In this document: one piece after another, positions 4,594-29,728 of the stretch
How positions within the stretch are numbered: position 1 is the stretch's first letter
How the letters are laid out: every line of letters begins with the position of its first letter
Source of the DNA: Actinomycetota bacterium
GTDB taxonomy: Bacteria > Actinomycetota > CADDZG01 > WHSQ01
DNA: 42,082 nt
Assembly: GCA_009377815.1 (NCBI GenBank)
Contig: WHTI01000013.1
Location: 1 to 42,082, forward strand
Reading direction: 5' to 3'
Made by a program: the position numbers and the translations under genes
Notes under the pieces: model-generated
Told to the model about the DNA's origin: nothing
The model's database searches: none
The model's input: the letters and a program-made list of their open reading frames with translations, nothing else

Positions 4594-4606
4594 GGATATA
4601 TTATAG
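4594..4606. promoter_or_regulatory. Putative operator site a (NNATA-N3-TATAG dyad)
   Basis: GGATA-TAT-TATAG in an otherwise GC-rich 111-bp gap, 50-62 nt upstream of Mo-hydroxylase copy A. It matches eight other intergenic copies in the catabolic block. Its position is consistent with an operator overlapping the promoter -10 region. Confidence 0.55.
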
Positions 4607-4654
4607 GTTGCGCCAACGGCTCGGGCCTTTTCGATCGTGACGCTCGCTCCCCGG

Positions 4655-5578
4655 CTAGAGCGAAACGATGATCGTACCGACGACGATCGCCGATCCGGCT
4701 AGAACCGTGGAGAGATGCAGATCCTCCACCTTCTTGAGCAGGATCCTGGAGAAGAGGAACACGCCCAGGGGTTGGGCAGCCACCAAGGGACTGACCAGCG
4801 TCACATCTCCCTTGTCCAACGCGCTGAAGAGGCTGATCAGCGCGAGCCCTGAAAAGACGCCACTGATCAGGAGCCATCCAACGTCTGATCCCACGTGCAG
4901 CTCGCGTCTGATCGGTCTTATGAAGAGCGCCCCGAGCATCCAGAGCAGGACGGCTGTCGACATCCCTACCAATGCGCCGAACCTGGGATGCTCCAGGCGC
5001 GTAACTGCTTCCTTGATGACGAGGTCAGACGTCGCGTACATCCCCGCCGCCAGAAGTGGGAAGAACAGTCCCGGGCGAAAGAACCGCGCGCTGGGCGCGG
5101 CCTCTTCGACGGGTCCCTCAAGTGAACCAAGACTAAGGGAACGTGCGTCCTCCCTTGAGCGGGATAGCTCCCAGCCACCAGCGACGATGACCAGAAGGCC
5201 GAGACCACGCTGCAGCGAAGGAGCTTCCCCGAAGATCGCCATCGCACCGAGGAAGGCGAGTAGGGGTCGGGCGCCTTGAGTGATAGGAACCGCGATCGAA
5301 GGTCCAAGGCGGTGGATCCCGGTGGTGGCTGCCCATCTCGAGATGCCCGGGGCAGCGAGACCACCCAGCGCAAAAAGCACCACTCCATCGAGCCGTATCT
5401 CGTCGGGGGGGCTGAACACCACTGAGATCGAGATCACACCCAAGGCGACGGTCAGGCTGATCAGAACGCTGGAGACGATGCTCGTCTCCTTGATCCCACG
5501 TTTAACGGTCACCTGGCTGGCAGCGAAACAAGTCGCGGCCGAGAGCGCGAATAGCTGAGCAGCTACCGCGTCGGACAC
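4655..5578 (-). CDS. EamA/DMT-family transporter
   Basis: About 307 residues with ten predicted hydrophobic segments and the EamA duplication (two five-helix halves, the first beginning AAQLFALSAATCFAASQ). Such proteins export or exchange small metabolites. The frame is open upstream to 5731, but that extension is charged, unlike the family, and would overlap operator site b. The GTG at 5578, next to the first membrane helix and preceded by TAAGG, is therefore preferred. It is divergent from the FAD subunit gene. It could export an intermediate of the local pathway; that is inference from position only. The two in-window EamA proteins (here and at 32231) are not adjacent copies. Confidence 0.82.
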   Translation of the reverse strand: MSDAVAAQLFALSAATCFAASQVTVKRGIKETSIVSSVLISLTVALGVISISVVFSPPDEIRLDGVVLFALGGLAAPGISRWAATTGIHRLGPSIAVPITQGARPLLAFLGAMAIFGEAPSLQRGLGLLVIVAGGWELSRSREDARSLSLGSLEGPVEEAAPSARFFRPGLFFPLLAAGMYATSDLVIKEAVTRLEHPRFGALVGMSTAVLLWMLGALFIRPIRRELHVGSDVGWLLISGVFSGLALISLFSALDKGDVTLVSPLVAAQPLGVFLFSRILLKKVEDLHLSTVLAGSAIVVGTIIVSL

Positions 5579-5705
5579 TAGGCTGAGCGCCTTACGTTCA
5601 GCGCGGAGATGATGCTTCGCATCGGACCTATGTCGTTTGACATCCCCACACAGCCCCCTCGTTGACACTCTGTTCGAAGGCATCCTAAACTCATGCTCGT
5701 GCATT

Positions 5706-5718
5706 TTATAGATTCGCT
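5706..5718. promoter_or_regulatory. Putative operator site b (weak copy of the dyad)
   Basis: TTATA-GAT-TCGCT between the divergent EamA and FAD-subunit genes. The left half matches the shared motif; the right half is degenerate. It shares the flank GCATT and centre GAT with site c. It is the weakest of the nine. Confidence 0.35.
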
Positions 5719-5769
5719 GGTCCGATTTCACCGGCGAGGCCCTGCCGTCGTCGGGGAGATACCGGCAGG

Positions 5770-6630
5770 ATGAAGCCCGCCGCGTTCGAGTATCAAAGGG
5801 TCACCTCATCGGAGGAGGCGGTCGAGTGCCTGTCTGCATTTGGCGAGGACGCGAAGATCCTCGCCGGTGGGCAGAGCCTGGTACCGATGATGAACTTCCG
5901 TTTGGCGCGTCCCTCCGCCCTGATAGATATCAACGGGATCAGGGACCTCGACTACATCACTCCGACGACCCAAGGTTTGCGGATCGGGGCGCTTACCAGG
6001 CACGCATCGTTGGAACAGCCTATGAATCGTGATGGGCGGTGGAGTTTCTTGTCGCCCCTGGCGCACTTCATCGGCCACTACCCGATCAGAACTCGCGGGA
6101 CCTTCGGCGGAAGTGTGGTGCATTCCGACCCATCGGCGGAACTTCCCACCCTCTGCGTAGCTTTGGATGCCGACATCCAGGTCCGGGGTCCGGATGGCTC
6201 GAGGACCGTCCCCGCTCGGAGCTTCTTCAAAGGTCCTTTTCAGGTGAACATGGAACCCGAGGAGATGCTTTGTGAGGTCGAACTGGGTTCGCCACCCGTC
6301 GGTGCACGTGTTGTTGTTGAAGAGATCGCTCGTCGGGCTGGAGACTTCGCGATCGTCCTCGTCATCGCGGGGCTTCACATCGAGGAGGGTGTGTGTCGGT
6401 GGGCACGGATCGGTCTCGGAGGCGTAGCCGGGGTGCCAGTGAGGGCACTGGACGCGGAGGCTCTCTTGGTTGGCGCTCCCCTTACGGAGGAGGCTTTCAA
6501 GGAAGCGGCTGAAGCAGCGATCCGTGAATTAACGCCACCTGAAGACATCCACGCGTCAGCCGAGTACAGGAAGCACGTAACAGGTGTACTCGTGCGGCGC
6601 GCTCTGTCGCGCGCCAGCGAACAGGCTTGA
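5770..6630 (+). CDS. Molybdenum hydroxylase FAD-binding (medium, CoxM-like) subunit
   Basis: A 286-residue medium subunit that passes electrons from the 2Fe-2S subunit to FAD and the external acceptor. The FAD signatures are AGGQSLVPMM near residues 32-41 and RGTFGGSVVHSDPSAELP. The C-terminal CO-deh-flavoprotein domain has RRAGDFAIV and the IGLGGVAGVPVRA turn. It is full length for the family. It is the only FAD subunit in the window against four large subunits, so it probably serves several of them. It begins a unit with the CMD-like gene, 51 nt apart, downstream of the weak operator site b. Confidence 0.92.
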   Translation: MKPAAFEYQRVTSSEEAVECLSAFGEDAKILAGGQSLVPMMNFRLARPSALIDINGIRDLDYITPTTQGLRIGALTRHASLEQPMNRDGRWSFLSPLAHFIGHYPIRTRGTFGGSVVHSDPSAELPTLCVALDADIQVRGPDGSRTVPARSFFKGPFQVNMEPEEMLCEVELGSPPVGARVVVEEIARRAGDFAIVLVIAGLHIEEGVCRWARIGLGGVAGVPVRALDAEALLVGAPLTEEAFKEAAEAAIRELTPPEDIHASAEYRKHVTGVLVRRALSRASEQA

Positions 6631-6681
6631 GAGGAAGCACGGCGTCGGATCGGGCGGAGACCCGCTGGGGGCAAAGGCTCT

Positions 6682-7275: not shown

Positions 7276-7288
7276 ATATAGATTAGAC
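7276..7288. promoter_or_regulatory. Putative operator site c, upstream of RidA-GntR
   Basis: ATATA-GAT-TAGAC, 65 nt before the RidA start. TTGTGA at 7256-7261 and TAGATT at 7279-7284, 17 nt apart, make a plausible sigma-70-type promoter that the dyad overlaps. If GntR binds here it regulates itself. Confidence 0.5.
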
Positions 7289-7353: not shown

Positions 7354-7770
7354 TTGGGGGGAGTGGAGCGAAGGAATTTCAATCCCAAGGGCCTCGCACC
7401 TCCGTTGGGCCCCTATGTCCATGCCGTACGTGTCTCGGGCGGAGACATGGTGTTCGTTTCGGGTTGTATCTCGACCGACGAGAACGGGCGGATCGTCGGA
7501 CCCGGGGACGTCGCCGCCCAGACCAGGCGCACGATGGAGAACCTTCGAGCTTGCCTGGCCGAGGCGGGAGCCGAAATGTCCGACGTCGTTAAGATCACGA
7601 ATTTCGTGTTGGACGCGCGCGACTATCCACAGATCGCGCCGGTAAGGGCAGAGTTCCTTACCGAACCCTTCCCGGCAAGCTCGATGGTCGAGGTGAAAGG
7701 GTTTATGTTTCCCGGATTGTTGATCGAGACCGAAGCCATAGCTGTGATCGGGGCGGGAGCGGGGGGATGA
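7354..7770 (+). CDS. RidA/YjgF/Rid-family protein
   Basis: A 138-residue Rid-family protein with the barrel-fold blocks GPYVHAVRV, GDMVFVSGCIS, QTRRTMENLRACLAEAG, VVKITNFVLD and IETEAIAV. The TTG start follows AGGGGGAGG by 4 nt; a GTG at 7363 is the alternative. RidA enzymes hydrolyse 2-aminoacrylate-type imines using an Arg in the PARS-C-V-E-V segment. Here that segment reads PASSMVEV, so the Arg is Ser (residue 110 from the TTG). This suggests a Rid subclass without classical imine deaminase activity. It overlaps the GntR gene by 4 bp (ATGA) and is therefore translationally coupled to it. Confidence 0.88.
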   Translation: MGGVERRNFNPKGLAPPLGPYVHAVRVSGGDMVFVSGCISTDENGRIVGPGDVAAQTRRTMENLRACLAEAGAEMSDVVKITNFVLDARDYPQIAPVRAEFLTEPFPASSMVEVKGFMFPGLLIETEAIAVIGAGAGG

Positions 7771-8444
7771 TGGCGGAAACCAGTGAGCATGGAGGGCCCC
7801 CAACCAGGGCCGATTGGGCCGAACAGATCCTCAGAGCCGACATACTCGCCGGGCGACTGAAACCCGGCGAGCGGATCAAGATCGGCGAACTGGTCGAGCG
7901 CTATCAGGGACTGAGCCCCACGCCATTGAGGGAGGCGCTGAGTCGCCTCGCCGGCAGCGGACTCGTTGAGTTTGTACCGCAAAGGGGAGTCCGTGTCGCA
8001 CAAGGCTCGAAGGCGGACCTTCTTGACGTGTACGAGATTCGGATCATGCTCGAAATGACTGCCCTCAAGCGATCGCTTCAGAAGGCCGACGAGGGATATG
8101 TCGCAGATGTGAAGAAGGCGATGGAGGACTTACGAGCGCTTTCCAATGTGGATGGAGACCCAGCCAGGATGGTTGCCTGGGAAGAAGCCCATCGGCGGTT
8201 CCATTCGGTCTTGTTGGAGCGGTGCGGTTCACCGTGGCTCTTGAAACTCACCACTCAGCTGTTCGAACACTCGACTCGCTATCGCAACCAATCTCTCGGA
8301 GTACGGGGGACGGAGGCAGACATCCTCCGCGAGCATTTGAACATCGCAGAGGCTGCGATCGCGGGGGATCGCAAGAAGGCGGTTGCCGCCCTTACCGACC
8401 ACCTGCGCTTGACGGTTGATGCTCTGGTCGAATCCCTGGAGTGA
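7767..8444 (+). CDS. GntR-family transcriptional regulator, FCD subfamily
   Basis: A 225-residue regulator with an N-terminal winged helix (about residues 12-75, with LKPGERI, LSPTPLREALSRLAGSGLVEF and RGVRVA) and a C-terminal FCD effector domain. Likely metal or ligand residues are EEAHRRFH, REHLNIAEA and the final TDHL. FCD regulators usually respond to small carboxylates and repress catabolic genes. It lies in the middle of the catabolic block, is coupled to RidA and follows operator site c. It is the only transcription factor in the window, so it is the obvious candidate to bind the nine dyads; direct binding is not shown. Confidence 0.93.
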   Translation: MMAETSEHGGPPTRADWAEQILRADILAGRLKPGERIKIGELVERYQGLSPTPLREALSRLAGSGLVEFVPQRGVRVAQGSKADLLDVYEIRIMLEMTALKRSLQKADEGYVADVKKAMEDLRALSNVDGDPARMVAWEEAHRRFHSVLLERCGSPWLLKLTTQLFEHSTRYRNQSLGVRGTEADILREHLNIAEAAIAGDRKKAVAALTDHLRLTVDALVESLE

Positions 8445-8453: not shown

Positions 8454-8939
8454 CTAGGCGTGTTGTGTTGTGGATGAGGAGCCGAGGGCTGACTGCACTG
8501 CCTTAAGGATGTTCAGGTAGCCCGTGCACCTGCAGAGGTTCGAGGACAGCAATTCACGCAATTCCTCCTCCGAGACACCCGGGCGATTTTCGTAGATCGA
8601 GGTGGCCAGCATCAGGAATCCAGGTGTGCAGAACCCACACTGCAGGGCGTGCTCATCGATGAATGCCTGTTGCATGGGGTGTAGTTCGGTTTCGGACGGC
8701 GCAAGGCTCTCTACCGTTCTGATCTCCCGATCGGCAGCTTGAACGGCAAACATCAGACAGGATCGAACGGGTTCGTCATCCATCAGGACCGTGCATGCAC
8801 CACAAACACCATGCTCGCAACCGAGGTTGGTCCCTGTGAGACCGCAGTCCTCTCGGATGGTGTCGGCGAGCGTCTTTCGTGGCTCTACCGCCACCGGGTA
8901 AGCGCGTCCGTTGATCTTCAGATCGATGCTCACTGTCAC
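8454..8939 (-). CDS. Molybdenum hydroxylase 2Fe-2S (small, CoxS-like) subunit
   Basis: A 161-residue electron-transfer subunit with two 2Fe-2S clusters. The plant-ferredoxin-type cluster uses [11 protein letters not shown] plus the Cys of RSCLMF. The helical-domain cluster uses CGFCTPG and CRCTGY. All eight cysteines are present. The frame is open further upstream, but GTG at 8939 follows AGGAGGAGGG at about 10 nt and gives the normal N-terminus ([11 protein letters not shown]). The longer frame would run through operator site d. It is divergent from large subunit copy B across 58 nt and is the only small subunit in the window. Confidence 0.93.
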
Positions 8940-8964: not shown

Positions 8965-8977
8965 ATATAAATTATCA
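8965..8977. promoter_or_regulatory. Putative operator site d, between divergent small and large Mo subunits
   Basis: ATATA-AAT-TATCA lies 25 nt from the small-subunit start and 20 nt from the large-subunit copy B start. One site could control both divergent units. Confidence 0.5.
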
Positions 8978-8997: not shown

Positions 8998-11235
8998 TTG
9001 ACCACGATCGGCCTGCCCGTTGCTCGACTCGAGGATGAAGCCATCGTCCGAGGGCTTGCGATGTACACGGGGGATGCCGTCGAACCGGAACTGCTGGAAG
9101 TTGCTTTTGCCCGCAGTTGGGCCGCACATGCGTTGATCAAAGAGGTGGATGTCGCGACCGCTCGCTCCATCCCCGGGGTAGTGGGGGTGTGGTCGGCCAT
9201 GGATGCTCCTTTCCCCCCGACCCCGCCCACCCCGCCGAACGTTCCCCCGGAAGGGGTCGAATGGCCGACCCTGGCGCGGGACAAGGTGAGGTACTTCGGG
9301 GAACCGCTCGCGATCGTTGCAGCAACAGACCGCTATGTTGCGGAGGATGCGGTAGGGCTGATCGATCTGGATCTTGAGCCCTTGCCGTCCTCTCACGATC
9401 CAACTGAAGCTGCTGCTTCCGATGCGGGCCAGCTGTTCGACAATGGCTCGAACGTGATGCTCGAGGGTCGATTCGGGGAGGACATCGAGGATGCTTTCGA
9501 GCGGGCCGATGTGGTCCTCGAGGGGAGATTCCGGCATCCTCGTCTCGCGCACATGGCCCTGGAGGGCCGCTCCTTCCTCGCTATCCCCAGGGCCGATGGA
9601 TTGGAGGTCTTCTGCTCCCACCAGGCCCCACACCGGCTACGGATGAGTCTTGCGTTGGCCCTACAGATGCCCCAGGAGAAGTTGCGGGTCCGGGTTCCTC
9701 ATGTGGGAGGGGCGTTCGGAGGGAAGAGCCAGGTGTACCCGGAGTATGTAGCCATCGCCTTCCTGTCTCTTCAACTGGGACGACCGCTGCGGTGGGTGGA
9801 AGACAGAACAGAGAGCTTCGTTGCCTCCGCTCACGGTCGTGGCCAGAACCAGGTGATCCGGCTAGCCGCGGAACGAAGCGGAAGAATCGTTGCCCTCGAC
9901 GTGCATATCGACGGGGATGTCGGAGCGTATCCACACACGGGCGCACTGGTACCCCCTATCACCGCCCTGATGATGCCTGGGCCCTATCGGATCCCCAGGC
10001 TGTCGGTACGGTTCCGCTCCGTCCTGACTAATGCCGTGCCGACAGCTCCCTATAGGGGCGCCGGCCGGCCCGAAGCGACCCTTGCACTTGAGGTGATGAT
10101 CGATCGGCTTGCGTCTGAGATCGGTGCAGACCCAGCAGAGGTTCGCGCGTTGAACTTCATCGCTCCTTCGGAGTTCCCATACGAGACCGGAACCGGTGAG
10201 GTTTATGACAGCGGCGACTATCCGACCGCACTCAAGTTGGCCCTTGATGTCTCTGGCTATAGAGAATCGACGGTCGAACCACATGGGCACGAGATGTCGG
10301 GCTTCGGGATCGCTAGTTTTGTCGAGCGCGCCGGGGGACAGAGCAACTCGAGTGAGTTTGGAAGCGTGGAGGTCACGCCCGAAGGAAGGATCGTCGCTCG
10401 GTCAGGTGCAATGTCAACGGGACAGGGGCACGCCACCACCTTCGCTCAGATCGTCGGGTCGGTTTTCGATGTCAGTTTGGATCGCGTCGATGTCATCCAA
10501 GGTGACACGGATGAGGTCTTAGAGGGGGTCGGCACCTTTGCTAGTCGATCGGTGCAACTCGGAGGATCTGCGTTGCTCGTCGCCTCACAAGAGGTGTTGG
10601 ATCTCGCGTGTGACCGAGCCGCGACCTCGTTGGAGGTCCACCGTGCCGATCTTGAATATTCCGAAGGTCGATTCTCCGTTGTGGGGGCCTCCTCGCGCGT
10701 TGTCAGCATCTTCGAGCTAGCTGCGGAAAGCGACCTCCAGGTAGGCGAAGTCTTTGCCGCAAAGCTCACCTACCCCTATGGGACCTACGTCGCTTCTGTG
10801 ATTGTGGATCGAGACACGGGGGTGACGGAACTCCGAGGCATCACGGCGGCCGACGATTGTGGCACCATCGTCAACCCGCTTCTCGTTGAAGGTCAAACGG
10901 TGGGATCGGTAGCGCAGGGGCTCGGATCGGTGCTCTTGGAGAGGGTTGTCTACGATGATGCGGGACAACCTCTGGCAGCTTCGATGATGGATTACTTAGC
11001 GCCAACCCTCAGCGAGATCCCCACGATCCGACCGGCGACCATGGTTACGCCAAGTCCCAATAACCCTCTGGGCGCCAAAGGCGCAGGAGAAGCCGGGTGT
11101 ATCGGAACGCCGGCTGCAGTCGCGAACGCGGTGTTGGGGATCCTTCGGCGACATGGATGCACCATGGTCGATGTTGACCTGCCTTTCACTCCCGAGCGAG
11201 TCTGGAGGGCCCTGAGGGATGGGCAGGATTCGTGA
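8998..11235 (+). CDS. Molybdenum hydroxylase large subunit, copy B
   Basis: A 745-residue Mo-pterin-binding subunit, the most divergent of the four copies. It has VGGAFGGKSQVYPEY (copies A, C and D have FGVRGExYPED), the active-site loop PYRGAGRPEA, STGQGHATTFAQI, and C-terminal LGAKGAGEAG with the catalytic Glu. The loop is the form II type seen in heterocycle and aldehyde hydroxylases, not in CO dehydrogenase. The TTG start is preceded by GGAGGAG at short spacing. It pairs most naturally with the divergent 2Fe-2S gene. It overlaps the downstream amidase gene by 4 bp (GTGA), so ring hydroxylation and amide hydrolysis are in one operon. Confidence 0.92.
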   Translation: MTTIGLPVARLEDEAIVRGLAMYTGDAVEPELLEVAFARSWAAHALIKEVDVATARSIPGVVGVWSAMDAPFPPTPPTPPNVPPEGVEWPTLARDKVRYFGEPLAIVAATDRYVAEDAVGLIDLDLEPLPSSHDPTEAAASDAGQLFDNGSNVMLEGRFGEDIEDAFERADVVLEGRFRHPRLAHMALEGRSFLAIPRADGLEVFCSHQAPHRLRMSLALALQMPQEKLRVRVPHVGGAFGGKSQVYPEYVAIAFLSLQLGRPLRWVEDRTESFVASAHGRGQNQVIRLAAERSGRIVALDVHIDGDVGAYPHTGALVPPITALMMPGPYRIPRLSVRFRSVLTNAVPTAPYRGAGRPEATLALEVMIDRLASEIGADPAEVRALNFIAPSEFPYETGTGEVYDSGDYPTALKLALDVSGYRESTVEPHGHEMSGFGIASFVERAGGQSNSSEFGSVEVTPEGRIVARSGAMSTGQGHATTFAQIVGSVFDVSLDRVDVIQGDTDEVLEGVGTFASRSVQLGGSALLVASQEVLDLACDRAATSLEVHRADLEYSEGRFSVVGASSRVVSIFELAAESDLQVGEVFAAKLTYPYGTYVASVIVDRDTGVTELRGITAADDCGTIVNPLLVEGQTVGSVAQGLGSVLLERVVYDDAGQPLAASMMDYLAPTLSEIPTIRPATMVTPSPNNPLGAKGAGEAGCIGTPAAVANAVLGILRRHGCTMVDVDLPFTPERVWRALRDGQDS

Positions 11236-11852
11236 GGATGGGTGACGCCAGACGAAGTGCCCTGCTCGTGATCGATGTACAGAACGATTTCGTGCACGAG
11301 AAGGGGGTTGGCGCATCGATCGGTTACGCGGTGACGGAATGCCAGCGTCGAATGCCCAAGGTGATCGCTTCGATCGAAGCGGCTCGCAGGGCCGGCGTAC
11401 CGGTCATCTTCATCAGAACGGAGCATCGGTCATGGACCGACGACTATTCATGGAAGGCACGACTCGGTGGAGCGATCCATGACGGGAGGCTGTGTGCAGC
11501 CGGTGGCTGGGGATCGGACTTCTATGAGGTAGAACCTCACCCCGACGAGCCAGTCATAACGAAGCATAGGTATAGCGCTTTCATCGGGACGGACCTCGAG
11601 ATCGTCCTTCGAAGTCTGGAGGTATCCGACCTCACATTCGTGGGGTTCGCTGCCAATGTCTGCGTTGAGAGCACATTGAGACACGCCTACATGATCGGGT
11701 ATCGAGTGACGCTGTTGAGGGACGCGACCGCCCCTACCTTTTCTGCGGCTGAACTCGATGCCACGATCTGCAACGTACGTAACTTCTTCGGCGACGTCTC
11801 CACCGTTGAAGACTGGCTCTCTCTAAGAGATGTGAAGTCGACCGATGCCTGA
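11232..11852 (+). CDS. Isochorismatase-fold cysteine hydrolase (putative N-carbamoyl/amide hydrolase)
   Basis: A 206-residue cysteine hydrolase. The catalytic triad is visible: Asp15 in LLVIDVQNDF, Lys111 in VITKHRYSAF and Cys144 in AANVCVESTLRHA. The family includes N-carbamoylsarcosine amidase, biuret hydrolase, maleamate amidase and ureidoacrylate hydrolase. With hydantoinase genes nearby, hydrolysis of an N-carbamoyl product is the most economical guess, but the sequence alone does not fix the substrate. GTG at 11232 overlaps the preceding stop by 4 bp; an ATG two codons later is the alternative. It overlaps the M20 gene by 8 bp, so the three genes form a tight operon. Confidence 0.88.
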   Translation: MRMGDARRSALLVIDVQNDFVHEKGVGASIGYAVTECQRRMPKVIASIEAARRAGVPVIFIRTEHRSWTDDYSWKARLGGAIHDGRLCAAGGWGSDFYEVEPHPDEPVITKHRYSAFIGTDLEIVLRSLEVSDLTFVGFAANVCVESTLRHAYMIGYRVTLLRDATAPTFSAAELDATICNVRNFFGDVSTVEDWLSLRDVKSTDA

Positions 11853-17148: not shown

Positions 17149-17161
17149 CTATATTCTATAG
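17149..17161. promoter_or_regulatory. Putative operator site e, before Mo subunit copy C and the ThDP gene
   Basis: CTATA-TTC-TATAG, a perfect 5-bp-arm dyad, in the 55-bp gap between copies C and D. Read on the minus strand, TAGAAT ends 10 nt from the ATG, as expected of a -10 element of a leaderless transcript. Confidence 0.58.
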
Positions 17162-19524: not shown

Positions 19525-19533
19525 CTGCTCTGG

Positions 19534-19546
19534 ATATAACGTATAT
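19534..19546. promoter_or_regulatory. Putative operator site f, before Mo subunit copy D
   Basis: ATATA-ACG-TATAT. With one more base each side the arms GATATA/TATATC (19533-19547) are perfectly palindromic, the best dyad of the set. It lies 9 nt from the ATG of copy D. Confidence 0.6.
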
Positions 19547-19595
19547 CTTCGATGAGAATGAAAGGAATTTGAGCTGGACTCTTGTGGAGGAAGGG

Positions 19596-19608
19596 CCATA
19601 GAATATAG
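19596..19608. promoter_or_regulatory. Putative operator site g, before the ABC importer
   Basis: CCATA-GAA-TATAG. On the minus strand it shares CTATATTCTAT with site e. It sits 50 bp from site f in the divergent promoter region between Mo subunit copy D and the importer operon. Confidence 0.52.
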
Positions 19609-19695
19609 ATTCCAGCGAAGGGGAGCAGAGACATCTTACCGGGGGGTGGGTTTTCGGAGATGGATGGCGCGACCGGAGCGGCGCAAAGGACAGAC

Positions 19696-20481: not shown

Positions 20482-21353
20482 GCACTCAAACCGAACCGAT
20501 CCAGCCAACCGGCGTGGGCGACGACCTCATGGTGGTCGCGCGCATCCCGTTTCGGACCCGGGCGAGGATCTGGGTGCTCACCAGGTTCATACCCCCTATC
20601 TTCATGTTCATCTTCGCGATCGGGCTCTTGGAACTGATCTCGGTCACAGAGGTCCTCCCCGCAATCGTTACTCCATCCCCACTCACGGTGCTTGAAACGA
20701 TGGGTCGCCAGGCCACGACCAGCTTTCTGTGGGAGAACATGTGGGTGACGCTGCAGGAAGGACTCCTGGGCTTCTTGATCGGGTCGGCCATCGGCATCTC
20801 CCTCGGGGTTGGGGTTGGAGTGTCCACGTTCATCGCTCGAGCCGTCTATCCGTTCGTGGTGCTGATCCAATCGATGCCTCGCGTCGCGTTGGCCCCCGTC
20901 TTCGTTGCACTGCTCGGATTCGGCCAGTCCGCCAAGGTCTTGACGGCGGTCGCCATCTGCTTCTTCCCGCCGCTGATCAACACGATCGTGGGGTTGAGGA
21001 ATTTCGACTCCGATGCGCTCTTGCTGATGCGCTCGCTACGAGCATCCAGGTGGCAGGTCTTCCGAAAGCTTCTCTTGCCGGGCGCCTTGCCGATGATCTT
21101 CGGTGGCCTCAAGACGGCCATGACCTTCGCGATCTTGGGGGCGATCGTTGGGGAATTGACCGCCGCCACGGAAGGCATTGGGAGCCTGATCGACATAGCT
21201 GCCTTCCAACTCCGCATGGACGCGGTGTACGGCTACATCCTCTGGATGTCCATCGTCTCGCTCGGGATCTTCGGGTTCATGGATTGGGTCGACAAACGCG
21301 TTGTCTTTTGGAGGGACGACGCTCGCAAGACGAGGTTGACGGACCAGGAGTAG
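20478..21353 (+). CDS. ABC transporter permease (TauC/SsuC type)
   Basis: A 291-residue inner-membrane subunit with about six hydrophobic helices. The EAA-type coupling loop reads MRSLRASRWQVFRKLL followed by PGALPMIFGGLK. The ATG overlaps the ATPase stop (ATGA), so the two are translationally coupled. It is followed after 38 nt by the solute-binding protein. The order ATPase, permease, binding protein, all in one direction, indicates a single import operon under site g. Confidence 0.94.
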   Translation: MSTQTEPIQPTGVGDDLMVVARIPFRTRARIWVLTRFIPPIFMFIFAIGLLELISVTEVLPAIVTPSPLTVLETMGRQATTSFLWENMWVTLQEGLLGFLIGSAIGISLGVGVGVSTFIARAVYPFVVLIQSMPRVALAPVFVALLGFGQSAKVLTAVAICFFPPLINTIVGLRNFDSDALLLMRSLRASRWQVFRKLLLPGALPMIFGGLKTAMTFAILGAIVGELTAATEGIGSLIDIAAFQLRMDAVYGYILWMSIVSLGIFGFMDWVDKRVVFWRDDARKTRLTDQE

Positions 21354-21391
21354 GGACTTAGAGACCCCTACGGGGAAAGGGAGGGATCGCA

Positions 21392-22492
21392 ATGTCGTTA
21401 GGCATGCGGTTGGAGAAGCGGTTCGTGGTTCGGTTGGTAGCAGTGCTGGCTGTTTTGGCGCTGCTGGCGACTGCTTGTGGGGATGATGATGATGGCGGGA
21501 GTGGAGCAGAGCTTAGGAGCATAGAACTGGGACTCTCCGGTGGTTCGTTGGCGTTCTATGGTTTCTTCGCGGCGGACTCCCTCGGCTACTACGAGGACGA
21601 GGGATTGGATGTCAACATCACTCCTACCGAAGGTTCCTCGGACGCGGCGCAGCAGCTTGTGGCGGAGAACTTTGACATCGCTATGGGTGTTCCCGACGCC
21701 ATGCTCGCAGCCATGCAAACAGAGAACCTGTATCCGTTCTTCACATACTTCACGAGTGAGTTTCGTGACTGGGTCGTTCCGGTCGACAGTCCGATCCAGG
21801 CGATCGCGGATCTTGCGGGTCTGAGACAGGGTGTCTCTACTCTCCAAAGTGGCGAGGTGCCTCTTGTTCGATACCTCTTGAACGAGGAAGGGATCGATCC
21901 GCAAGAGGACATCGAGATCATCGAAGTAGGAGATGCTCCTCCTTCGATCCAAGCAGCTTTGGAGCAGGAGAGGATCGATAGCTTCGCCGGGTCGGCGTCT
22001 CATGTCATCGCCATCAACTCTGCCGGCTACGAAACGCGATCGATACTTCCTGAGACGTTCGCTTCAGGTTTGCCCGTCGAGGGTCTTCTTGCCCGGGAAC
22101 CGTTCAACGAAGATGACGAGCTGTTGGTTGGGATCGCGCGCGCCACGGCGAGAGGGATCCTATTCTGCCAGACGAGTATCGAGGCATGCATCGACGCCAT
22201 CGGGCAGGATCGCCCGGAACTCGTGGAGGACAGAGAGTTGGCGGTAACGACTCTCGAGAACTACTACACGTTCTCCACTCCTCCCGAGGAGAACGGCGAG
22301 CTGAATTTCAGCCCGACGACCACGGAGGGTTGGGAGCACTACCTCGGCGTGTATAGCTCGGGGGAGGACCCTGTGGTGACGGACCCGGGCGCCATTGACC
22401 TCCCCAATCTCGTTATCGAAGACCTCCGAGAGGCGATCAACGATTTCGATAGGGATGCGGTGATCGAGGAAGCCAACAACTTCGGGGGGTAG
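21392..22492 (+). CDS. ABC transporter substrate-binding lipoprotein (NMT1/THI5-like, SsuA/TauA family)
   Basis: A 366-residue lipoprotein with a signal peptide ending in the lipobox LLATAC (Cys29), followed by an acid linker GDDDDGGSG. The mature part has the SBP_bac/NMT1 pattern: IELGLSGGSLAFYGFFAADSLGYYEDEGLDV near the start, then DAAQQLVAENFDIAMGVPDAML, and a PVDSPIQAIADLAGLRQGVST block. It captures the substrate outside the membrane for the preceding ABC genes. Relatives bind hydroxymethylpyrimidine, riboflavin precursors or sulfonates; the ligand here is unknown. A strong terminator follows. Confidence 0.93.
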   Translation: MSLGMRLEKRFVVRLVAVLAVLALLATACGDDDDGGSGAELRSIELGLSGGSLAFYGFFAADSLGYYEDEGLDVNITPTEGSSDAAQQLVAENFDIAMGVPDAMLAAMQTENLYPFFTYFTSEFRDWVVPVDSPIQAIADLAGLRQGVSTLQSGEVPLVRYLLNEEGIDPQEDIEIIEVGDAPPSIQAALEQERIDSFAGSASHVIAINSAGYETRSILPETFASGLPVEGLLAREPFNEDDELLVGIARATARGILFCQTSIEACIDAIGQDRPELVEDRELAVTTLENYYTFSTPPEENGELNFSPTTTEGWEHYLGVYSSGEDPVVTDPGAIDLPNLVIEDLREAINDFDRDAVIEEANNFGG

Positions 22493-24486: not shown

Positions 24487-24499
24487 ATATAGACTATAG
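24487..24499. promoter_or_regulatory. Putative operator site h, before hyuAB
   Basis: ATATA-GAC-TATAG within an AT-rich run in a GC-rich gap, 73 nt upstream of the hydantoinase A start. A possible -35 (TTGTCG, 24466-24471) lies 18 nt before TAGACT, so the dyad overlaps the likely -10. Confidence 0.58.
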
Positions 24500-24572: not shown

Positions 24573-26633
24573 ATGTCTCGCTACTTCATAGGCGTAGACA
24601 TCGGTGGCACCTTTACGGACATCGTCGCAGTAGAGAACGACACGGGTGAGATCATTGTGGGGAAGGTTCCTTCTTCGCCCCCCACCTTCGTCGAGGGGAT
24701 CCTAGATGGGCTCGACCGCCTTCCGTTCTCTCTTGATGAGGTGGAACTCTTCGTTCATGGCTCGACGATCGGGACGAACGCGATCATCGAGCGCCGGGGA
24801 GCGCCTACCGCGCTCCTGACGACATCAGGCTTCCGTGACGTACTTCTGTGCGCCCGTGCCACCCGGCCTGATGTCTACGATCTCAGATGGCGACCAGGAC
24901 CCTCACTCGCTCAACGGCGGAACATCTTCGAAGTAGATGAGCGCATGGATTACCTCGGCCGTGTAGTGACTGAATTGCGCGCCGAGGATGTGAGGACGGC
25001 AGCTCGAAAGATCAAGGCTCGCGGGATCGAAGCCGTGGCGATCTGTTTCTTAAACTCATTCGTAAATGCGGATCACGAGCAACTTGCGCGCGACATCTTG
25101 CGGGAAGAGTGCCCGGACATCCATATATCGATCTCCTATGAGGTTTTTCCAGAGATCAGAGAGTTCGAACGGACCAGCACTGCGGTTGTCAACGCGTACA
25201 TCGCTCCGGTAACAGAGAATTATCTCACCAGACTCTCCGCCGGCCTTACCGAGCGAGGGATGCAGTCCGATCTTCTAATCGTGCACTCGGGCGGTGGGAT
25301 CATGAGTGAGGATATGACGCGAAAGATCCCTGCGCGCACCTGTTACTCAGGACCGGCCGGCGGGGTCATGGGCGGAGCCTATGTTGGTTCGCTTGCGGGC
25401 TTGGCGAACGTGATCACGATGGACATGGGGGGAACGAGTTGCGATGTGGCACTTGTTGCCGACGGCGAGCCGCTGATCAAGCCGGGATTGCACATCGAGC
25501 ACAACATCCCTGTGAGTTTTCCGAGCATCGACATGCAGACGATCGGAGCCGGTGGGGGATCGATTGCCTGGATCGATCCCGGAGGCATCCTCAAGAGTGG
25601 CCCGGCCAGCGCCGGAGCGGTTCCAGGACCCGCCTGCTACTCGCGAGGTGGAGAACTCCCTACGACTACGGATGCCCACTGTGTCTTGGGCAGGCTGGGC
25701 GAGACGGGACTTCTTGGCGGCGAGCTGAAGCTTGACGCCGAGATGGCCCGCGCTGCCATCAAGACCCACATCGCAGATCCGTACGGTTGGAGTGTGGAGG
25801 TGGCTGCCAACGCCATCTTGAAGGTAGCGAACGCAAGCATGATCAACGCGATTCGTCTCGTGTCGGTTGAGCAAGGTTACGACCCCCGTGATTTTGCCCT
25901 CGTTTCGTTCGGGGGCGCCGGGGCTCTGCACGCCGGCGACCTGGCTTCCGAATTGGGAATCCCTACTGTGGTGTTCCCCCGATTCCCCGGACTTGCTTCG
26001 GCGTTCGGAATGCTGCACGTGGATCTGAAGCATGACCTGATCCGGCCACTCTTCATGCGCGAGAGTCAGATCAGTGCCGCTCAGATTAACGAGGTCTTGG
26101 CAGACCTGGAGAACGAGGCACTCACCCTTCTGGCTAGGGAAGGGATCGACAAGTCTGATGTGAGTCTCCAAAGACTCTTCGATCTGAAGTATTTCCCACA
26201 GAGTTCATATCTAACCCTCCCGGGGCCCGAGGGCGAGCTCACTGACGAAGACGTGCACGACCTGATCCGCCTGTACAACGAGACGCACGAGCGGGAGTTC
26301 GGATACTCAATGCCGCCGGACAAGGTTGAGGTCGAGATCGGGCATGTCCGCCTGACCGCAGAGGGTCCTATTGAGAAACCGCAACTTCGAGAGCGACCAC
26401 TTGAAGGAGCTAACGCGGTGCCGCGCAAGCGGCAGGTTTGGTTCGCGTCGGCCGGCGACTGGGTAGCGACGGATGTTTACGACCGAGAACGACTCGGTTC
26501 AGGAACCGAACTCCAGGGCCCAGCTGTGATCGAGCAGTTCGATAGCACATGCCTCATCCCACCGGGGGCCTCTGCGACGGTGGATCCGTACGAGAACCTA
26601 CTGGTTCGAGTTCCGTCAGGAGGTCAGTCATGA
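24573..26633 (+). CDS. hyuA: Hydantoinase/oxoprolinase family protein, subunit A (ATP-dependent)
   Basis: A 686-residue subunit of the hydantoinase A/N-methylhydantoinase/oxoprolinase family. These enzymes open five-membered cyclic amides or carboxylate ketones using ATP. Visible ATPase-fold blocks are GVDIGGTFTDIVA (residues 7-19), HGSTIGTNAIIERRGA, CYSGPAGGVMGG, MDMGGTSCDVALV (about 284) and GAGGGSIAWID. The full family length is present. ATG is preceded by GGAGGGGG. The gene overlaps hyuB by 4 bp, the usual two-subunit arrangement. Family members also include acetone and acetophenone carboxylases, so the hydantoin role is inferred from context. Confidence 0.93.
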   Translation: MSRYFIGVDIGGTFTDIVAVENDTGEIIVGKVPSSPPTFVEGILDGLDRLPFSLDEVELFVHGSTIGTNAIIERRGAPTALLTTSGFRDVLLCARATRPDVYDLRWRPGPSLAQRRNIFEVDERMDYLGRVVTELRAEDVRTAARKIKARGIEAVAICFLNSFVNADHEQLARDILREECPDIHISISYEVFPEIREFERTSTAVVNAYIAPVTENYLTRLSAGLTERGMQSDLLIVHSGGGIMSEDMTRKIPARTCYSGPAGGVMGGAYVGSLAGLANVITMDMGGTSCDVALVADGEPLIKPGLHIEHNIPVSFPSIDMQTIGAGGGSIAWIDPGGILKSGPASAGAVPGPACYSRGGELPTTTDAHCVLGRLGETGLLGGELKLDAEMARAAIKTHIADPYGWSVEVAANAILKVANASMINAIRLVSVEQGYDPRDFALVSFGGAGALHAGDLASELGIPTVVFPRFPGLASAFGMLHVDLKHDLIRPLFMRESQISAAQINEVLADLENEALTLLAREGIDKSDVSLQRLFDLKYFPQSSYLTLPGPEGELTDEDVHDLIRLYNETHEREFGYSMPPDKVEVEIGHVRLTAEGPIEKPQLRERPLEGANAVPRKRQVWFASAGDWVATDVYDRERLGSGTELQGPAVIEQFDSTCLIPPGASATVDPYENLLVRVPSGGQS

Positions 26634-28501
26634 CCAAGATCGAATCCCCGCGGCGCGTAGATCCCGTTACCTTTGAGGTGCTGCGCAGCGGGTTCCGAGC
26701 GATGTGCACGGAAGGAAGCGCTCTTCTCCGTCGAGTGGCCTATCACCCGACGATCACAGAGGGACAGGACTTCTCGGTAGCCCTCTTGACGGCGGATGGA
26801 CGAATGGTGGGGAACGGCCACCGCGACCAGACACCGCACTTTGGCTCTTTCGAGGCCACAGTGCTCGCGGTGATAGAAGACTTCCCCAACCTGTCTCCCG
26901 CTGATGCCATCATCTGCAACGATCCACACAGGCTTGGCACCCACACGCTGGACGTCCGCATCGTCCGCCCGGTGTTTCGTGGAGACGAACTGATGGCCTT
27001 TGCTGTCGCCCTGTGTCACTGGGCGGATTGTGGCGGCGTGATGCCGGGCACTTTCTACCCAGAGGCGACGGAGTGCTACTCGGAGGGGCTGCATATCCCT
27101 CCCCTGAAGATCTTTGAGAACGATGAGCTGGTTCAGCCCATCTGGAAGCTGCTCGAGCTGAACCTTCGAACGCCATGGGACAGGATTGGTGACTTGCTCG
27201 CTCAGTTGCAAGCGTGCAAGTTGGTCGAGAAGCGACTGAACGAGTACATGGACAAGTTCGGAGAAGAGACCATTCTGGATACTTTCGAAGAAACCATGGA
27301 TTACTCCGAACGCCTGTTCCGGCAGGAGGTTGCCCTCCTCCCGGACGGCACCTATGAGTTCGAGGACTACATCGACCACGACGAGGGCCAAGAGGGACAC
27401 CCAGCGGTTCGGGTCGTTCTGAAGATGACGATCGACGAGGACAACGTTACTTATGACTTCACCGAGACAGACAAGATTGTTGGTCCGGCTGGAGTTCCTT
27501 ACCCCGGGATGCAGTCGGCCTCTTACGACGGGACGCTACACATCTTTGCTCACCTCGCTCCGCTCAACCACGGCATCGTCCGGTCGATCGAGCTGAAGAC
27601 GACACCCGGGACGGCTACTCACGTCGTCCGACCTATTCCTACCGCCGGGTACTGCGCGGGCGCTTACGAGAAGATCGATGCATGCGTTATGGCATGCTGG
27701 GCGCAGGCTTTTCAAGCCAGTGACCTCAATCGCGTCTACGCGGGTACGGTCAACCTGCAGAACATCTGCCTGGGCGGGAAGCACCCCGAAACCGGTGTCG
27801 ACTACGTCTCCTATACGTGGGTCGAAGGCGGTCAGGGAGCTCTCGTCGGCGCCGACGGGCCCACGGGACTCATGTACCTCTTTATCTCGGGAGCCGGCAA
27901 CCAGCCGGTCGAGATCCACGAACGCTTCTACCCGTGGCGCTACACGGCTTGCGAAGTGAGGAAGGACACCGCCGGTGACGGGAAGTACCGCGGGGGCTGT
28001 GGGGTCTTCAGGAACTGGGAGGTTCTCGGCGACTCTCTCCTGACCGTCCACGGGGACAGGAGTGAGCACGGTCCTTACTCCCTTGATGGAGGCACGAACG
28101 GCGGTCCCAGCACGTTGATCCTCAATGCCGGGAAGGATGACGAACAGGATCTTGGCATGTACGCGAGCGGTATCAAGCTCGGATCCGGCGATCACATCAC
28201 GTTCGGCTCAAACGGCGGCGGGGGAATCGGAAACCCGTGGGAGCGCGACCAGGCTCTTGTCCTCGAAGACGTTCTCGATGACTTCATCTCGTTGGAGAAA
28301 GCCCGGGATGTGTACGGCGTTGTGATCGATGTCTTGGACGAGGACAGTCTCGACTATGTGATCGATGAGGCAGCATCCAAGACCAAGCGATCGGAGCTAG
28401 CCAAGGTGGGCGGCGATCGCTCCGTTGGATATGCCCCAGGGGAGGTTCATCCATACGGGGATCGAGTCGATACCTCTGCTTACGAGGCGTCGGCGAGTTG
28501 A
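26630..28501 (+). CDS. hyuB: Hydantoinase/oxoprolinase family protein, subunit B
   Basis: A 623-residue partner subunit. Typical blocks are VDPVTFEVLRSGFRAMCTEGSALLRRVAYHPTITEGQDFSVAL, IICNDPHRLGTHTLDVRIV, SYDGTLHIFAHLAPLNHGIVRSIE and the C-terminal GGNPWERD-like GGGIGNPWERD. ATG 26630 follows AGGAGG and overlaps the hyuA stop by 4 bp; the frame is open about 80 bp upstream within hyuA, which is ignored. With HyuA it forms the ATP-dependent ring-opening enzyme. The BKACE gene follows after 43 nt in the same direction. Confidence 0.93.
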   Translation: MTKIESPRRVDPVTFEVLRSGFRAMCTEGSALLRRVAYHPTITEGQDFSVALLTADGRMVGNGHRDQTPHFGSFEATVLAVIEDFPNLSPADAIICNDPHRLGTHTLDVRIVRPVFRGDELMAFAVALCHWADCGGVMPGTFYPEATECYSEGLHIPPLKIFENDELVQPIWKLLELNLRTPWDRIGDLLAQLQACKLVEKRLNEYMDKFGEETILDTFEETMDYSERLFRQEVALLPDGTYEFEDYIDHDEGQEGHPAVRVVLKMTIDEDNVTYDFTETDKIVGPAGVPYPGMQSASYDGTLHIFAHLAPLNHGIVRSIELKTTPGTATHVVRPIPTAGYCAGAYEKIDACVMACWAQAFQASDLNRVYAGTVNLQNICLGGKHPETGVDYVSYTWVEGGQGALVGADGPTGLMYLFISGAGNQPVEIHERFYPWRYTACEVRKDTAGDGKYRGGCGVFRNWEVLGDSLLTVHGDRSEHGPYSLDGGTNGGPSTLILNAGKDDEQDLGMYASGIKLGSGDHITFGSNGGGGIGNPWERDQALVLEDVLDDFISLEKARDVYGVVIDVLDEDSLDYVIDEAASKTKRSELAKVGGDRSVGYAPGEVHPYGDRVDTSAYEASAS

Positions 28502-28544
28502 GAGTCAGCACCCTGAAGATTTGGAGAGAAGACGGTGAGGCGAG

Positions 28545-29405
28545 GTGACGCGTCCCAAGGTGATCATTACATGTGCGCTCACTGGCGGAGTTCACGGGAA
28601 AGACGCCAATCCGAATCTTCCGGAGCAACCTGATGAGATCATCGAACAAGGAATTGCGGCGTGGAGGGCCGGGGCGGCGGTTCTTCACTGTCATGCACGG
28701 GATCCTAAAGGCGAGCCGACCACCGATCCTGCGATCTTCTCACGCATATATAAAGGCTTACTCGCGGAGACGGATGCCATTATCAACCTCACAACAGGTG
28801 GCGGACTTGGTCTTTCTATAGAGGAACGCATTAGATCGACCGAATTGGTTCCCGAGATTTGCACGCTCAATATGGGGTTGCTTGATTTCATACTCCGAGG
28901 AGAGGAGTTCTTCTTCTCGAATCATCGGTCGGAGATCACGTGGTTCGTTAAGACGATGCGAGAGAAGGGGATTAAACCCGAGCTCGAGTGCTACAACATC
29001 GCGATGATCGAAGAGTCCATAAGACTGATCGACAGTGGGTTGGTAGATCCTCCGTACTTGTTCAACCTGGTTCTGAACACACCCACACTGGGCGGGTTGA
29101 GCGGCACGCCTCTGAATGTCTTCGACATGGTTAAGCGATTGCCCGAGAACTCCGTCGTGAGCGTTTCGAGCATGGGAAACACGCAGCTCCCGATCACAAC
29201 GATCGGGATGGCCATGGGCCTACATGTACGAGTTGGGTTGGAGGACAACGTCCACTACGCAGCGAAGGAGCTTGCTGTGAGCAACGCTCAACTTGTGGAA
29301 CGAGCAGTGAGATTGGCCAAGGAGCTGCAGCTCGATCCAGCAACGCCGGACGAGACACGTGACTTCGTGGGTCTACCTCGGGACTCAGAGCGCCGTCTGT
29401 TTTAA
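28545..29405 (+). CDS. Beta-keto acid cleavage enzyme (BKACE, DUF849/Kce-like)
   Basis: A 286-residue TIM-barrel zinc enzyme. The family condenses a beta-keto acid with acetyl-CoA to give acetoacetate and a new CoA ester (3-keto-5-aminohexanoate cleavage being the model). Visible zinc ligands are His48 and His50 (VLHCHARDPKG) and Glu233 (VGLEDNVHY). The entry motif ANPNLPEQPDEI and the end VSNAQLVERAVRLAKEL are typical. The GTG start is preceded by GGTGAGG. It is the last gene of the hyuAB unit, suggesting it processes the carbon skeleton released by ring opening. The specific beta-keto acid is unknown. Confidence 0.9.
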   Translation: MTRPKVIITCALTGGVHGKDANPNLPEQPDEIIEQGIAAWRAGAAVLHCHARDPKGEPTTDPAIFSRIYKGLLAETDAIINLTTGGGLGLSIEERIRSTELVPEICTLNMGLLDFILRGEEFFFSNHRSEITWFVKTMREKGIKPELECYNIAMIEESIRLIDSGLVDPPYLFNLVLNTPTLGGLSGTPLNVFDMVKRLPENSVVSVSSMGNTQLPITTIGMAMGLHVRVGLEDNVHYAAKELAVSNAQLVERAVRLAKELQLDPATPDETRDFVGLPRDSERRLF

Positions 29406-29414
29406 AATGTCATA

Positions 29415-29441
29415 GTGGCCAACAATTCAGGTCCTGGCCAC
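29415..29441 (+). terminator. Weak hairpin terminator after BKACE gene
   Basis: GTGGCCA pairs with TGGCCAC around a 13-nt loop, 10 nt after the BKACE stop. There is no T-tract, so termination would be inefficient or Rho-dependent. Confidence 0.4.
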
Positions 29442-29715
29442 GCTAGTCCGCAAGCTCCGACACTTGTCGCGCGTTCGCATGGGACTGCCCAGGTTTGGTT
29501 GACTCCTGATCTGTGAGGATGGCCTCACGCAGACGGGCAGTCGATGCAGCGCAACCGGTTGCTCGAGGAGGGAAACGAGGTCCTTCCCGGCGGCGATCTA
29601 CCTCGGACAGGGGGTCAAGACAAAATGCTGTACCCGTGACCTTGCCGCTGACGGGACCCCGTCGTGGTGACCTGCCCAAGAATCATTCGTTTGACTTTTG
29701 TTTCGGTTGCGTTTT

Positions 29716-29728
29716 ATATACACTATAT
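29716..29728. promoter_or_regulatory. Putative operator site i, upstream of the structured region and tRNA-Sec
   Basis: ATATA-CAC-TATAT, flanked by TTGCG (29707-29711) and CGCAA (29732-29736). TTGACT at 29691-29696 is 18 nt before TATATA, giving a good sigma-70-type promoter reading right. No protein gene follows; tRNA-Sec begins 281 nt later. Confidence 0.55.

What the first reader, a model, noticed from the sequence alone, without database searches (positions are those of the whole stretch)
4594..29728. Nine-copy AT-rich dyad defines an apparent catabolic regulon
NNATA-N3-TATAG occurs in intergenic DNA at 4594, 5706 (weak), 7276, 8965, 17149, 19534, 19596, 24487 and 29716. All nine keep ATA in the left half, and eight keep TA at the start of the right half. 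It precedes the start of nearly every transcription unit of the catabolic block that is visible: Mo subunit A, the FAD/EamA pair, RidA-GntR, the divergent Mo subunits, copies C and D, the ABC operon and hyuAB. None is seen right of 30 kb. The only regulator, a GntR/FCD protein, is itself preceded by a copy. The motif differs from the usual GTnnnAC-centred FCD operators I know. An alternative is that the copies are only -10 elements; the palindromy and fixed 3-nt centre argue for more.
Basis: partly seen in the sequence, partly recalled or inferred. Interest (0 to 1): 0.8.

Follow-up and report, generated by a model that had tools for sequence, protein, structure and literature searches.

The report
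TATA-type operator of a catabolic regulon
A short AT-rich mirror-image DNA sign sits in front of most operons of a catabolic gene block and is rare in the rest of this bacterial genome, and related genomes suggest it is the docking site of an unusual branch of GntR/FCD repressors that lack the arginine such proteins normally use to read a G.

Summary
Eight of the nine listed sites fit TATA-N3-TATA with at most one mismatch; 5706 is only a half-site, and 29716 precedes no recognised protein gene (next is tRNA-Sec). In the 3.6-Mb genome the exact 11-mer occurs at 9 places: 4 in this 42-kb contig, 5 on three others, before ABC-transporter, amidohydrolase and reductase genes or a second FCD-type GntR gene. 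A generic -10 element would not behave so: 23 same-class genomes hold 6 exact sites in about 62 Mb, and the same-genus genome, which lacks a close GntR homologue, holds none. A 47%-identical GntR from another class of the phylum has a perfect copy before its own operon; some relatives of the second GntR carry such sites too. Both regulators lack the recognition-helix Arg (FadR/Atu1419 Arg45) that reads G, which fits an operator whose half-sites lack G. Best reading: operator of an Arg-less FCD/GntR branch, near core promoters, probably repressive. Binding is unproven; the Arg-less/TATA link is a tendency found after the fact; the two resident regulators cannot be told apart; a double role as -10 box is not excluded. 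New variant of a known kind.

The parts
4594..4606 (-). operator copy before Mo-hydroxylase large subunit A (2267-4543, - strand), 51 bp before its ATG; 1 mismatch
5706..5718 (+). half-site only (TATAGATTCGC), between EamA (-) and the FAD subunit (+); not counted as a dyad
   Evidence: absent from the list with up to 1 mismatch
7276..7288 (+). operator copy before RidA-GntR (RidA ORF 7354-7770 overlaps GntR 7767-8444 by 4 nt); 1 mismatch
7354..7770 (+). RidA-type protein (PF01042), first gene of the gntR unit
7767..8444 (+). GntR/FCD regulator, recognition helix S-P-T-P-L-R-E (no Arg at FadR position 45); candidate regulator
8454..8939 (-). 2Fe-2S subunit of a Mo hydroxylase (PF00111, PF01799); GTG 8939 is my guess for the start (longest ORF runs to 9284)
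8965..8977 (.). operator copy (1 mismatch) between the divergent 2Fe-2S subunit (-) and Mo large subunit B (8998-11235, +; isochorismatase-like and M20 genes follow)
17149..17161 (-). operator copy (exact, CTATATTCTATAG) between Mo subunits C (14808-17144) and D (17200-19599), before C
19534..19546 (-). operator copy (exact) before Mo subunit D (if its start is about 19491; inside the longest ORF)
19596..19608 (+). operator copy (1 mismatch) 52 bp before the ABC transporter operon (19660-22492, NMT1-type binding protein)
24487..24499 (+). operator copy (exact, TATAGACTATA) 74 bp before hyuA (24573); hyuB and BKACE follow
29716..29728 (+). operator copy (exact, TATACACTATA); no recognised protein gene adjacent; tRNA-Sec starts about 280 bp downstream

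Best explanation
The dyad [AC]TATA-N3-TATA[GT] is the operator of an FCD-type GntR regulator, most likely a repressor. A dimer would sit on the 11-bp inverted repeat, one winged HTH per TATA half-site, near the core promoter (21-74 bp before the start codon at the seven window sites with a protein target, with trimmed starts for subunits C and D), and leave when a pathway metabolite binds the FCD domain, switching on transporters and catabolic enzymes together and its own RidA-gntR operon. The geometry (11 bp, 3-nt centre) is that of the FadR-subfamily operator TKGT-N3-ACMA, but the G is gone, and so is the recognition-helix Arg that reads it: Pro in the window's regulator, Ala in its orthologue and in the second regulator on C479. 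Shown here: the dyad, its concentration in this regulon, its recurrence in front of several related regulator genes, the Arg loss. Inferred: binding, repression, inducer, and which of the two resident regulators acts at which site.
For: Rare and clustered: 9 exact places in 3.6 Mb, 4 here, 2 on C207, 2 on C479, 1 on C121; neighbours include a branched-chain-type ABC operon, an amidohydrolase, an FCD GntR gene, an ABC binding protein beside hyuBA, and reductase component C. Class control: own genome 9 against 3 for the reversed pattern; 23 same-class genomes 6 against 20 (Fisher P 0.004); same-genus G001 has 0 exact sites and no homologue of this GntR at E<=1e-24 (its best is 1.8e-11, 26%). The 47% orthologue in G162, another class, has a perfect TATAATATATA 46 bp before its operon, one of 3 exact sites in 3.5 Mb. 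FCD survey of 82 regulator loci: up to 1 mismatch upstream in 5 of 10 S[AP]TP regulators (mean of 200 dinucleotide shuffles 0.26, largest 2) and 7 of 72 others (mean 0.59, largest 3); without the two loci that prompted the idea (G162, C479) it is 3 of 8. G030's only two exact sites (overlapping, 4.5 Mb) lie directly before an FCD gene with STTP. G003's single exact site lies 48 bp before an NMT1-type binding-protein gene, one of G005's two lies at the start of an amidohydrolase ORF, both on the contig of that genome's best homologue of this GntR. Arg45 logic: in Atu1419 Arg45 reads the essential G and G-to-A abolishes binding (PMC7797058, passages); FadR Arg45-G (PMC4494728, Table 1).
Against: No binding or expression data. 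Three of 15 R/K-type FCD loci also have a one-mismatch site upstream, so the Arg-less/TATA link is a tendency, not a rule, and it was noticed after the fact. Of 29 SVTP loci only 3 have TATA-N3-TATA within one mismatch, and 7 have a TATTTGATA- or TATTTCATA-like element instead or as well; over the 55 Arg-less xTP loci ATAT-N3-ATAT (15) outnumbers TATA-N3-TATA (9) at up to 1 mismatch. Two FCD regulators in this genome share the sign, so the window's GntR may not be the one that binds. The second regulator has Asp where FadR has Arg35, a residue that PMC4494728 links to a G/C pair. The reversed pattern is more common genome-wide at one mismatch (71 against 27). Of 15 hyuA-family genes compared, 14 lack a site (one of these had only 5 bp of upstream DNA), so no site-by-site conservation of the block could be shown. 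The remaining same-class exact sites (G005 C144, G011, G017, G023) and two of three in G162 have no explained target. Of the 17 more distant phylum genomes, seven have 7-129 exact sites, with the reversed control as high or higher in six of them, so the motif means nothing there (probably AT-rich genomes, not measured). Twelve FCD genes from plasmids gave 0 exact sites and 1 with one mismatch, but none was of the S[AP]TP type.
Confidence: 0.7

Rival explanations
1. The copies are only -10 promoter elements that happen to look palindromic in a GC-rich genome.
For: Seven window sites lie 21-74 bp before start codons and contain TATAAT/TATAGA-like hexamers; a few have TTGAC-like sequence upstream; 3 of 13 sites have at least 4 of 6 matches to TTGACA at 16-18 nt spacing, against 7.9% of 5000 random window positions.
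Against: Exact copies exist at only 9 places in 3.6 Mb, too few for a housekeeping element. Both halves and the 3-nt gap are kept: 14 of 14 own-genome sites keep ATA on the left and TA at the start of the right half (these sites were chosen for matching). The mean -35 score of 13 sites (2.69) is hardly above background (2.30, sd 0.86). Same-class genomes have few or none.
Confidence: 0.1
2. The regulator of the sites is the second FCD protein (C479) or both FCD proteins together, not mainly the window's GntR (not exclusive of the best explanation).
For: C479 gntR has TATATCCTATA and TATATCCTACA in its own promoter; a 50% relative in G297 has AATAGACTATA just before its start codon, and a G545 protein 53% identical to that one has a perfect TATAGAATATA upstream. 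G162 is not among the 20 genomes listed for the C479 protein (E<=1e-22) and G297 not among the 12 listed for the window protein (E<=1e-24), so each type seems to use the sign on its own.
Against: The window's gntR lies inside the block and its operon has a copy; its 47% orthologue has a perfect copy.
Confidence: 0.45
3. An unrelated regulator encoded elsewhere in the genome binds the dyad, and the FCD genes are merely members of its regulon.
For: No binding data; regulator genes can be targets of other regulators.
Against: The sign recurs before FCD genes in several distant genomes (G162, G297, G545, G030), which one unrelated regulator would not easily explain.
Confidence: 0.13
4. Chance: AT-rich spots between genes.
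For: With one mismatch allowed, other spacings and half-sites also score in the window, and the reversed pattern is commoner genome-wide.
Against: Clustering in four contigs, class control.
Confidence: 0.03

Closest known systems
FadR-subfamily (FCD) operators with TKGT-N3-ACMA
   Same: 11-bp inverted repeat with a 3-nt centre, AT-rich flanks, found near regulator genes and regulated operons (PMC4494728, sections 5, 10 and 14 read)
   Different: no G or C in either half-site; the regulator lacks the recognition-helix Arg that reads the G
BioR of alpha-proteobacteria (TTATMKATAA)
   Same: a GntR/FadR-subfamily regulator with an AT-rich inverted repeat without the GT/AC pair (motif quoted in PMC4494728); predicted autoregulatory site (PMC4554459, passages)
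   Different: 2-nt centre and 10-bp span; biotin genes; its recognition helix was not examined here
Atu1419 and AlkR (VanR-group FCD repressors)
   Same: catabolic repressors whose palindromes overlap -10 boxes (PMC7797058 and PMC12042122, passages)
   Different: operators ATGTATACAT and ATTGTCAGACAAT contain the G; Atu1419 needs Arg45 and the G
HypR of Streptomyces coelicolor
   Same: FCD repressor of catabolic genes, autorepressor, own site covers the -10 region (PMC6608401, passages)
   Different: motif CTNTGC(A/C)ATGTCAC, with GT and little symmetry
TM0439 of Thermotoga maritima (3sxy)
   Same: among the best solved relatives by sequence (3sxy E 1.2e-15, 3fms E 5.7e-16 with nearly the same sequence); also lacks Arg at this position (S-F-T-P-V-R-D) (that 3sxy is TM0439 is stated in PMC4494728)
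   Different: operator not looked up here

Membership tests
FCD-type GntR regulator (the protein) | N-terminal GntR winged HTH plus C-terminal FCD domain | tested here: met
   PF00392 E 1e-14 and PF07729 E 1.6e-23, both above the curated cut-offs
FadR-subfamily operator (the DNA site) | inverted repeat with 3-nt (or 2-nt) centre | tested here: met
   TATA pairs at offset 7; 4 exact dyads at spacing 3 in the window
FadR-subfamily operator (the DNA site) | GT...AC pair (TKGT/ACMA) | tested here: not met
   the eight half-site positions read T-A-T-A / T-A-T-A, with 0 to 2 exceptions per position, at 14 own-genome sites chosen for matching
FadR-subfamily operator (the DNA site) | recognition by Arg at HTH position 38 (FadR Arg45) | tested here: not met
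   Pro in the window GntR, Ala in the G162 orthologue and C479 GntR
FadR-subfamily operator (the DNA site) | bound by the regulator | not testable with these tools
   needs gel shift or footprint
Sigma-70 -10 element | common at unrelated promoters of the genome | tested here: not met
   9 exact and 27 one-mismatch places in 3.6 Mb for the whole dyad; a lone hexamer was not counted
Sigma-70 -10 element | -35 hexamer at 16-18 nt | tested here: inconclusive
   mean 2.69 of 6 against 2.30 background, 13 sites
BioR operator TTATMKATAA | 2-nt centre | tested here: not met
   exact TATA dyads at spacing 2: 0 in the window

The most novel reading that the evidence does not exclude
A branch of FCD/GntR repressors of this phylum has replaced the Arg-G readout by an Arg-less S-[A/P]-T-P recognition helix that reads pure TATA half-sites, and in this genome two such regulators, only 25-27% identical, share one operator code, wiring molybdenum hydroxylases, hydantoinase-type enzymes, transporters and a selenium-dependent glycine/sarcosine/betaine reductase (perhaps with its tRNA-Sec) into one regulon. 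The enzyme set could suit a creatinine or N-methylhydantoin to sarcosine route (inference from families only).
Probability: 0.33. Interest if true: 0.62.

Novelty: new variant of a known kind. Interest (0 to 1): 0.5.

Why it matters
FCD regulators are numerous and their operators are often guessed from the GT...AC rule; a recognisable sub-branch with a different, G-free code would let catabolic regulons be predicted that are now missed. It also gives a testable swap: put Arg at one position and ask whether the site preference moves towards a G-containing repeat. Locally it groups the catabolic operons of a bacterium known here only from a fragmented genome and suggests which genes act together.

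Tried and rejected
A genome-contig scan with the GntR protein found one 27% relative only. Orthologous catabolic blocks for footprinting were sought through hyuA in 26 genomes; matches in other genomes are 38-42% identical and those with upstream DNA lack sites. Plasmid-borne FCD genes (12 of 60 listed hits fetched, of 328 records) contained no S[AP]TP member, so they are only a weak negative control. The pure -10 reading was tested with a -35 search and by genome and class counts of the dyad and set aside. The idea that all Arg-less FCD proteins share TATA-N3-TATA was rejected: only 3 of 29 SVTP loci have it within one mismatch. Six of the seven one-mismatch places on contigs C82, C93, C102, C225, C257, C299 and C443 fall inside open frames by a crude ORF call and were dropped as probable chance; the seventh (C299) lies near a contig end. 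C207:19275 falls in an ORF without Pfam match and was not pursued. Before the FCD survey count I dropped loci repeated between searches (L070, L104, L105, L119, L126, L130, L132), those at contig ends (L026 with its repeat L089, L027, L057) and the distant L050. Literature: searches for GntR/FCD motifs, the motif with GntR, BioR, FCD operators with TATA and footprint, FCD with recognition helix and AT-rich and the enzyme set with GntR; five listed papers were opened (sections or passages) and what I saw of them does not describe this operator. The library holds open-licence papers only.
Full report
CHECK OF THE OBSERVATION. The common core is better written TATA-N3-TATA: exact at 17150, 19535, 24488 and 29717, one mismatch at 4595, 7277, 8966 and 19597. 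Site 5706 keeps one half only. Spacing was tested directly: in the window a TATA is followed by another at offset 7 four times and at offsets 10-60 never; exact dyads are 4 at spacing 3, 1 at spacing 1, 2 at spacing 5 and otherwise 0 at spacings 0-12, although counts with one mismatch do not single out spacing 3. With four 5' ends trimmed by me all nine sites are intergenic (6.3% of bases 1-31140 are); with the longest ORFs three of nine fall inside ORF 5' ends and a fourth overlaps one by 3 bases.

GENES. The block holds four Mo-hydroxylase large subunits, an FAD subunit, a 2Fe-2S subunit (- strand, facing large subunit B across site 8965, with GTG 8939 as probable start), RidA, GntR/FCD, an isochorismatase-like and an M20 hydrolase, a TPP enzyme, an ABC transporter with NMT1-type binding protein, a Rieske protein, an amidohydrolase, HyuA, HyuB and BKACE. 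Bases between the 11-mer and the start codon: 51 (subunit A), 66 (RidA ORF), 21 (subunit B), 56 (C, trimmed start; 5 with the longest ORF), 43 (D, trimmed), 52 (ABC), 74 (hyuA).

GENOME-WIDE. The window is contig C52 of a 3.6-Mb, 485-contig genome. The exact 11-mer occurs at 9 places: four here, C121:373, C207:9665 and 17135, C479:22701 and 32161; the reversed control occurs at 3. With one mismatch there are 27 places, 8 here and 5 in two clusters on C479; the reversed control has 71, so it is clustering, not abundance, that marks the motif. P(at least 8 of 27 in this contig) is 6e-10, uncorrected for the choice of window. C207:9665 lies 33 bp before the binding-protein gene of a branched-chain-type ABC operon, next to a RidA gene; C207:17135 lies in the 5' part of an ORF whose amidohydrolase domain starts at residue 177, so probably before the true start, and 163 bp before a divergent unknown gene; C479:22701 and 22800 lie in the promoter of a second FCD GntR gene, followed by MaoC-, acyl-CoA-dehydrogenase- and CoA-transferase-type genes, with an M29-type gene divergent; C479:32154-32178 is an overlapping array before an ABC binding protein beside hyuBA; C121:373 lies 342 bp before glycine/sarcosine/betaine reductase component C beta, and a one-mismatch copy, C121:3144, 38 bp before an ABC permease. 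So the regulon extends beyond the window.

RELATIVES. Among 23 same-class genomes (about 62 Mb) there are 6 exact sites against 20 for the reversed control; the own genome has 9 against 3 (Fisher P 0.004). Seven of the 17 more distant phylum genomes in that call have 7-129 sites with similar or higher controls (only G039, 13 against 9, has more sites than controls), so they say nothing. The same-genus genome G001 has none and lacks a close homologue of the window GntR. Of 396 genomes of the phylum 12 have a homologue at E<=1e-24, the own genome included; the best other is 47% identical, in G162, another class. A perfect TATAATATATA lies 46 bp before that gntR operon (with HMGL-like and cyclase-type genes), one of three exact sites in 3.5 Mb; the other two are unexplained. 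In G030 the only two exact sites, overlapping in a long palindrome, lie directly before an FCD gene; in G003 the only one lies 48 bp before an NMT1-type binding-protein gene and in G005 one of two at the start of an amidohydrolase ORF, each on the contig of that genome's best homologue of this GntR. The other same-class sites (G005 C144, G011, G017, G023) have no explained target.

REGULATOR SURVEY. For 82 FCD loci gathered by the searches, three of them from the own genome (L012, L031, L074), I scanned 250 bp upstream of the estimated start plus any unmatched N-terminal stretch. Regulators with S-[A/P]-T-P at the recognition helix: 5 of 10 have a site with up to one mismatch, shuffle mean 0.26, largest of 200 shuffles 2; the rest 7 of 72, shuffle mean 0.59, largest 3. 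The residue grouping was made after seeing the first cases; without the two that prompted it (G162, C479) the count is 3 of 8. The window GntR itself is a miss in that scan, because its site lies before RidA; two of the five misses (L076, L106) seem to lack a promoter of their own. Exact sites: G162, C479 GntR, and G545, an SVTP protein, whose TATAGAATATA is the reverse complement of window 17150. Of 29 SVTP loci 3 have the TATA dyad and 7 a TATTTGATA- or TATTTCATA-like element. Three of 15 R/K-type loci have a one-mismatch site.

WHY IT FITS FCD PROTEINS. FadR-subfamily operators are TKGT-N3-ACMA, the same 11-bp, 3-nt-gap geometry (PMC4494728, sections 5, 10, 14). The Arg at HTH position 38 (FadR Arg45) reads G; in Atu1419 changing that G to A abolishes binding (PMC7797058, passages). 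In the window GntR the aligned residue is Pro, in the G162 orthologue and the C479 GntR it is Ala, and the operator half-sites have no G. Against a perfect fit: the C479 protein has Asp at the FadR-Arg35 position, a residue linked to a G/C pair. The mapping onto FadR numbering uses the T-R-T-T-x-R-E pattern of Table 1 in PMC4494728 and the shared R-E; no structure-based alignment to FadR was made.

MECHANISM. The sites' distance to start codons is where known FCD repressors overlap -10 boxes (PMC7797058, PMC12042122, PMC6608401, passages). Repression relieved by a pathway metabolite is therefore most likely, with autoregulation of RidA-gntR. A -35-like hexamer is only marginally more frequent than background, so a double role as -10 box is neither shown nor excluded. 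Which of the two resident regulators acts where cannot be decided from sequence.

VERDICT. A real operator-like dyad and a real regulon signature; a new variant of a known kind (FCD/GntR operator), with an explanation in the recognition helix that can be tested at the bench.

Noticed in passing
window 38-1183 and 30010-31140; G000:C121:726-2201: Selenium theme: a glycine/sarcosine/betaine reductase component B-like protein at the contig start, tRNA-Sec and SelD in the window, and reductase component C beta on C121 behind a copy of the dyad. tRNA-Sec lies about 280 bp after dyad 29716.
   Followed up: partly
window 24573-28501, 11232-13041, 38-1183: HyuAB, an isochorismatase-family amidohydrolase, an M20 hydrolase and a sarcosine-reductase-like subunit together would suit a creatinine or N-methylhydantoin to sarcosine route (inference from families; hyuA scores best, below cut-off, against caprolactamase alpha).
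   Followed up: no
window 2267-4543, 8998-11235, 14808-17144, 17200-19599, 5770-6630, 8454-8939: Four molybdenum-hydroxylase large subunits but one FAD and one 2Fe-2S subunit among the 37 window ORFs scanned against Pfam (of 130 listed).
   Followed up: partly
G000:C479:22715-22790 (L036:2715-2790): Four tandem copies of a 14-bp CGATAACGACGTGA unit between the two dyads in the promoter of the second FCD gene (read by eye).
   Followed up: no
G000:C271:5185 and 6808; C82:23412; C93:240: A sister sign TATACTG-N-ATA recurs; on C271 one copy lies at the start of another FCD gene, this one with Arg (SRSP), and one is intergenic.
   Followed up: partly
L080, L095, L097, L100, L111, L125, L128 (upstream of FCD genes, other genomes): Seven of 29 SVTP-type FCD genes carry a TATTTGATA- or TATTTCATA-like element, sometimes repeated, a possible separate operator class.
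   Followed up: partly
window 29717-29727 and G000:C207:17135-17145: The two dyads share a longer identical stretch, CGTTTTATATACACTATA, though one precedes tRNA-Sec and the other catabolic genes.
   Followed up: no
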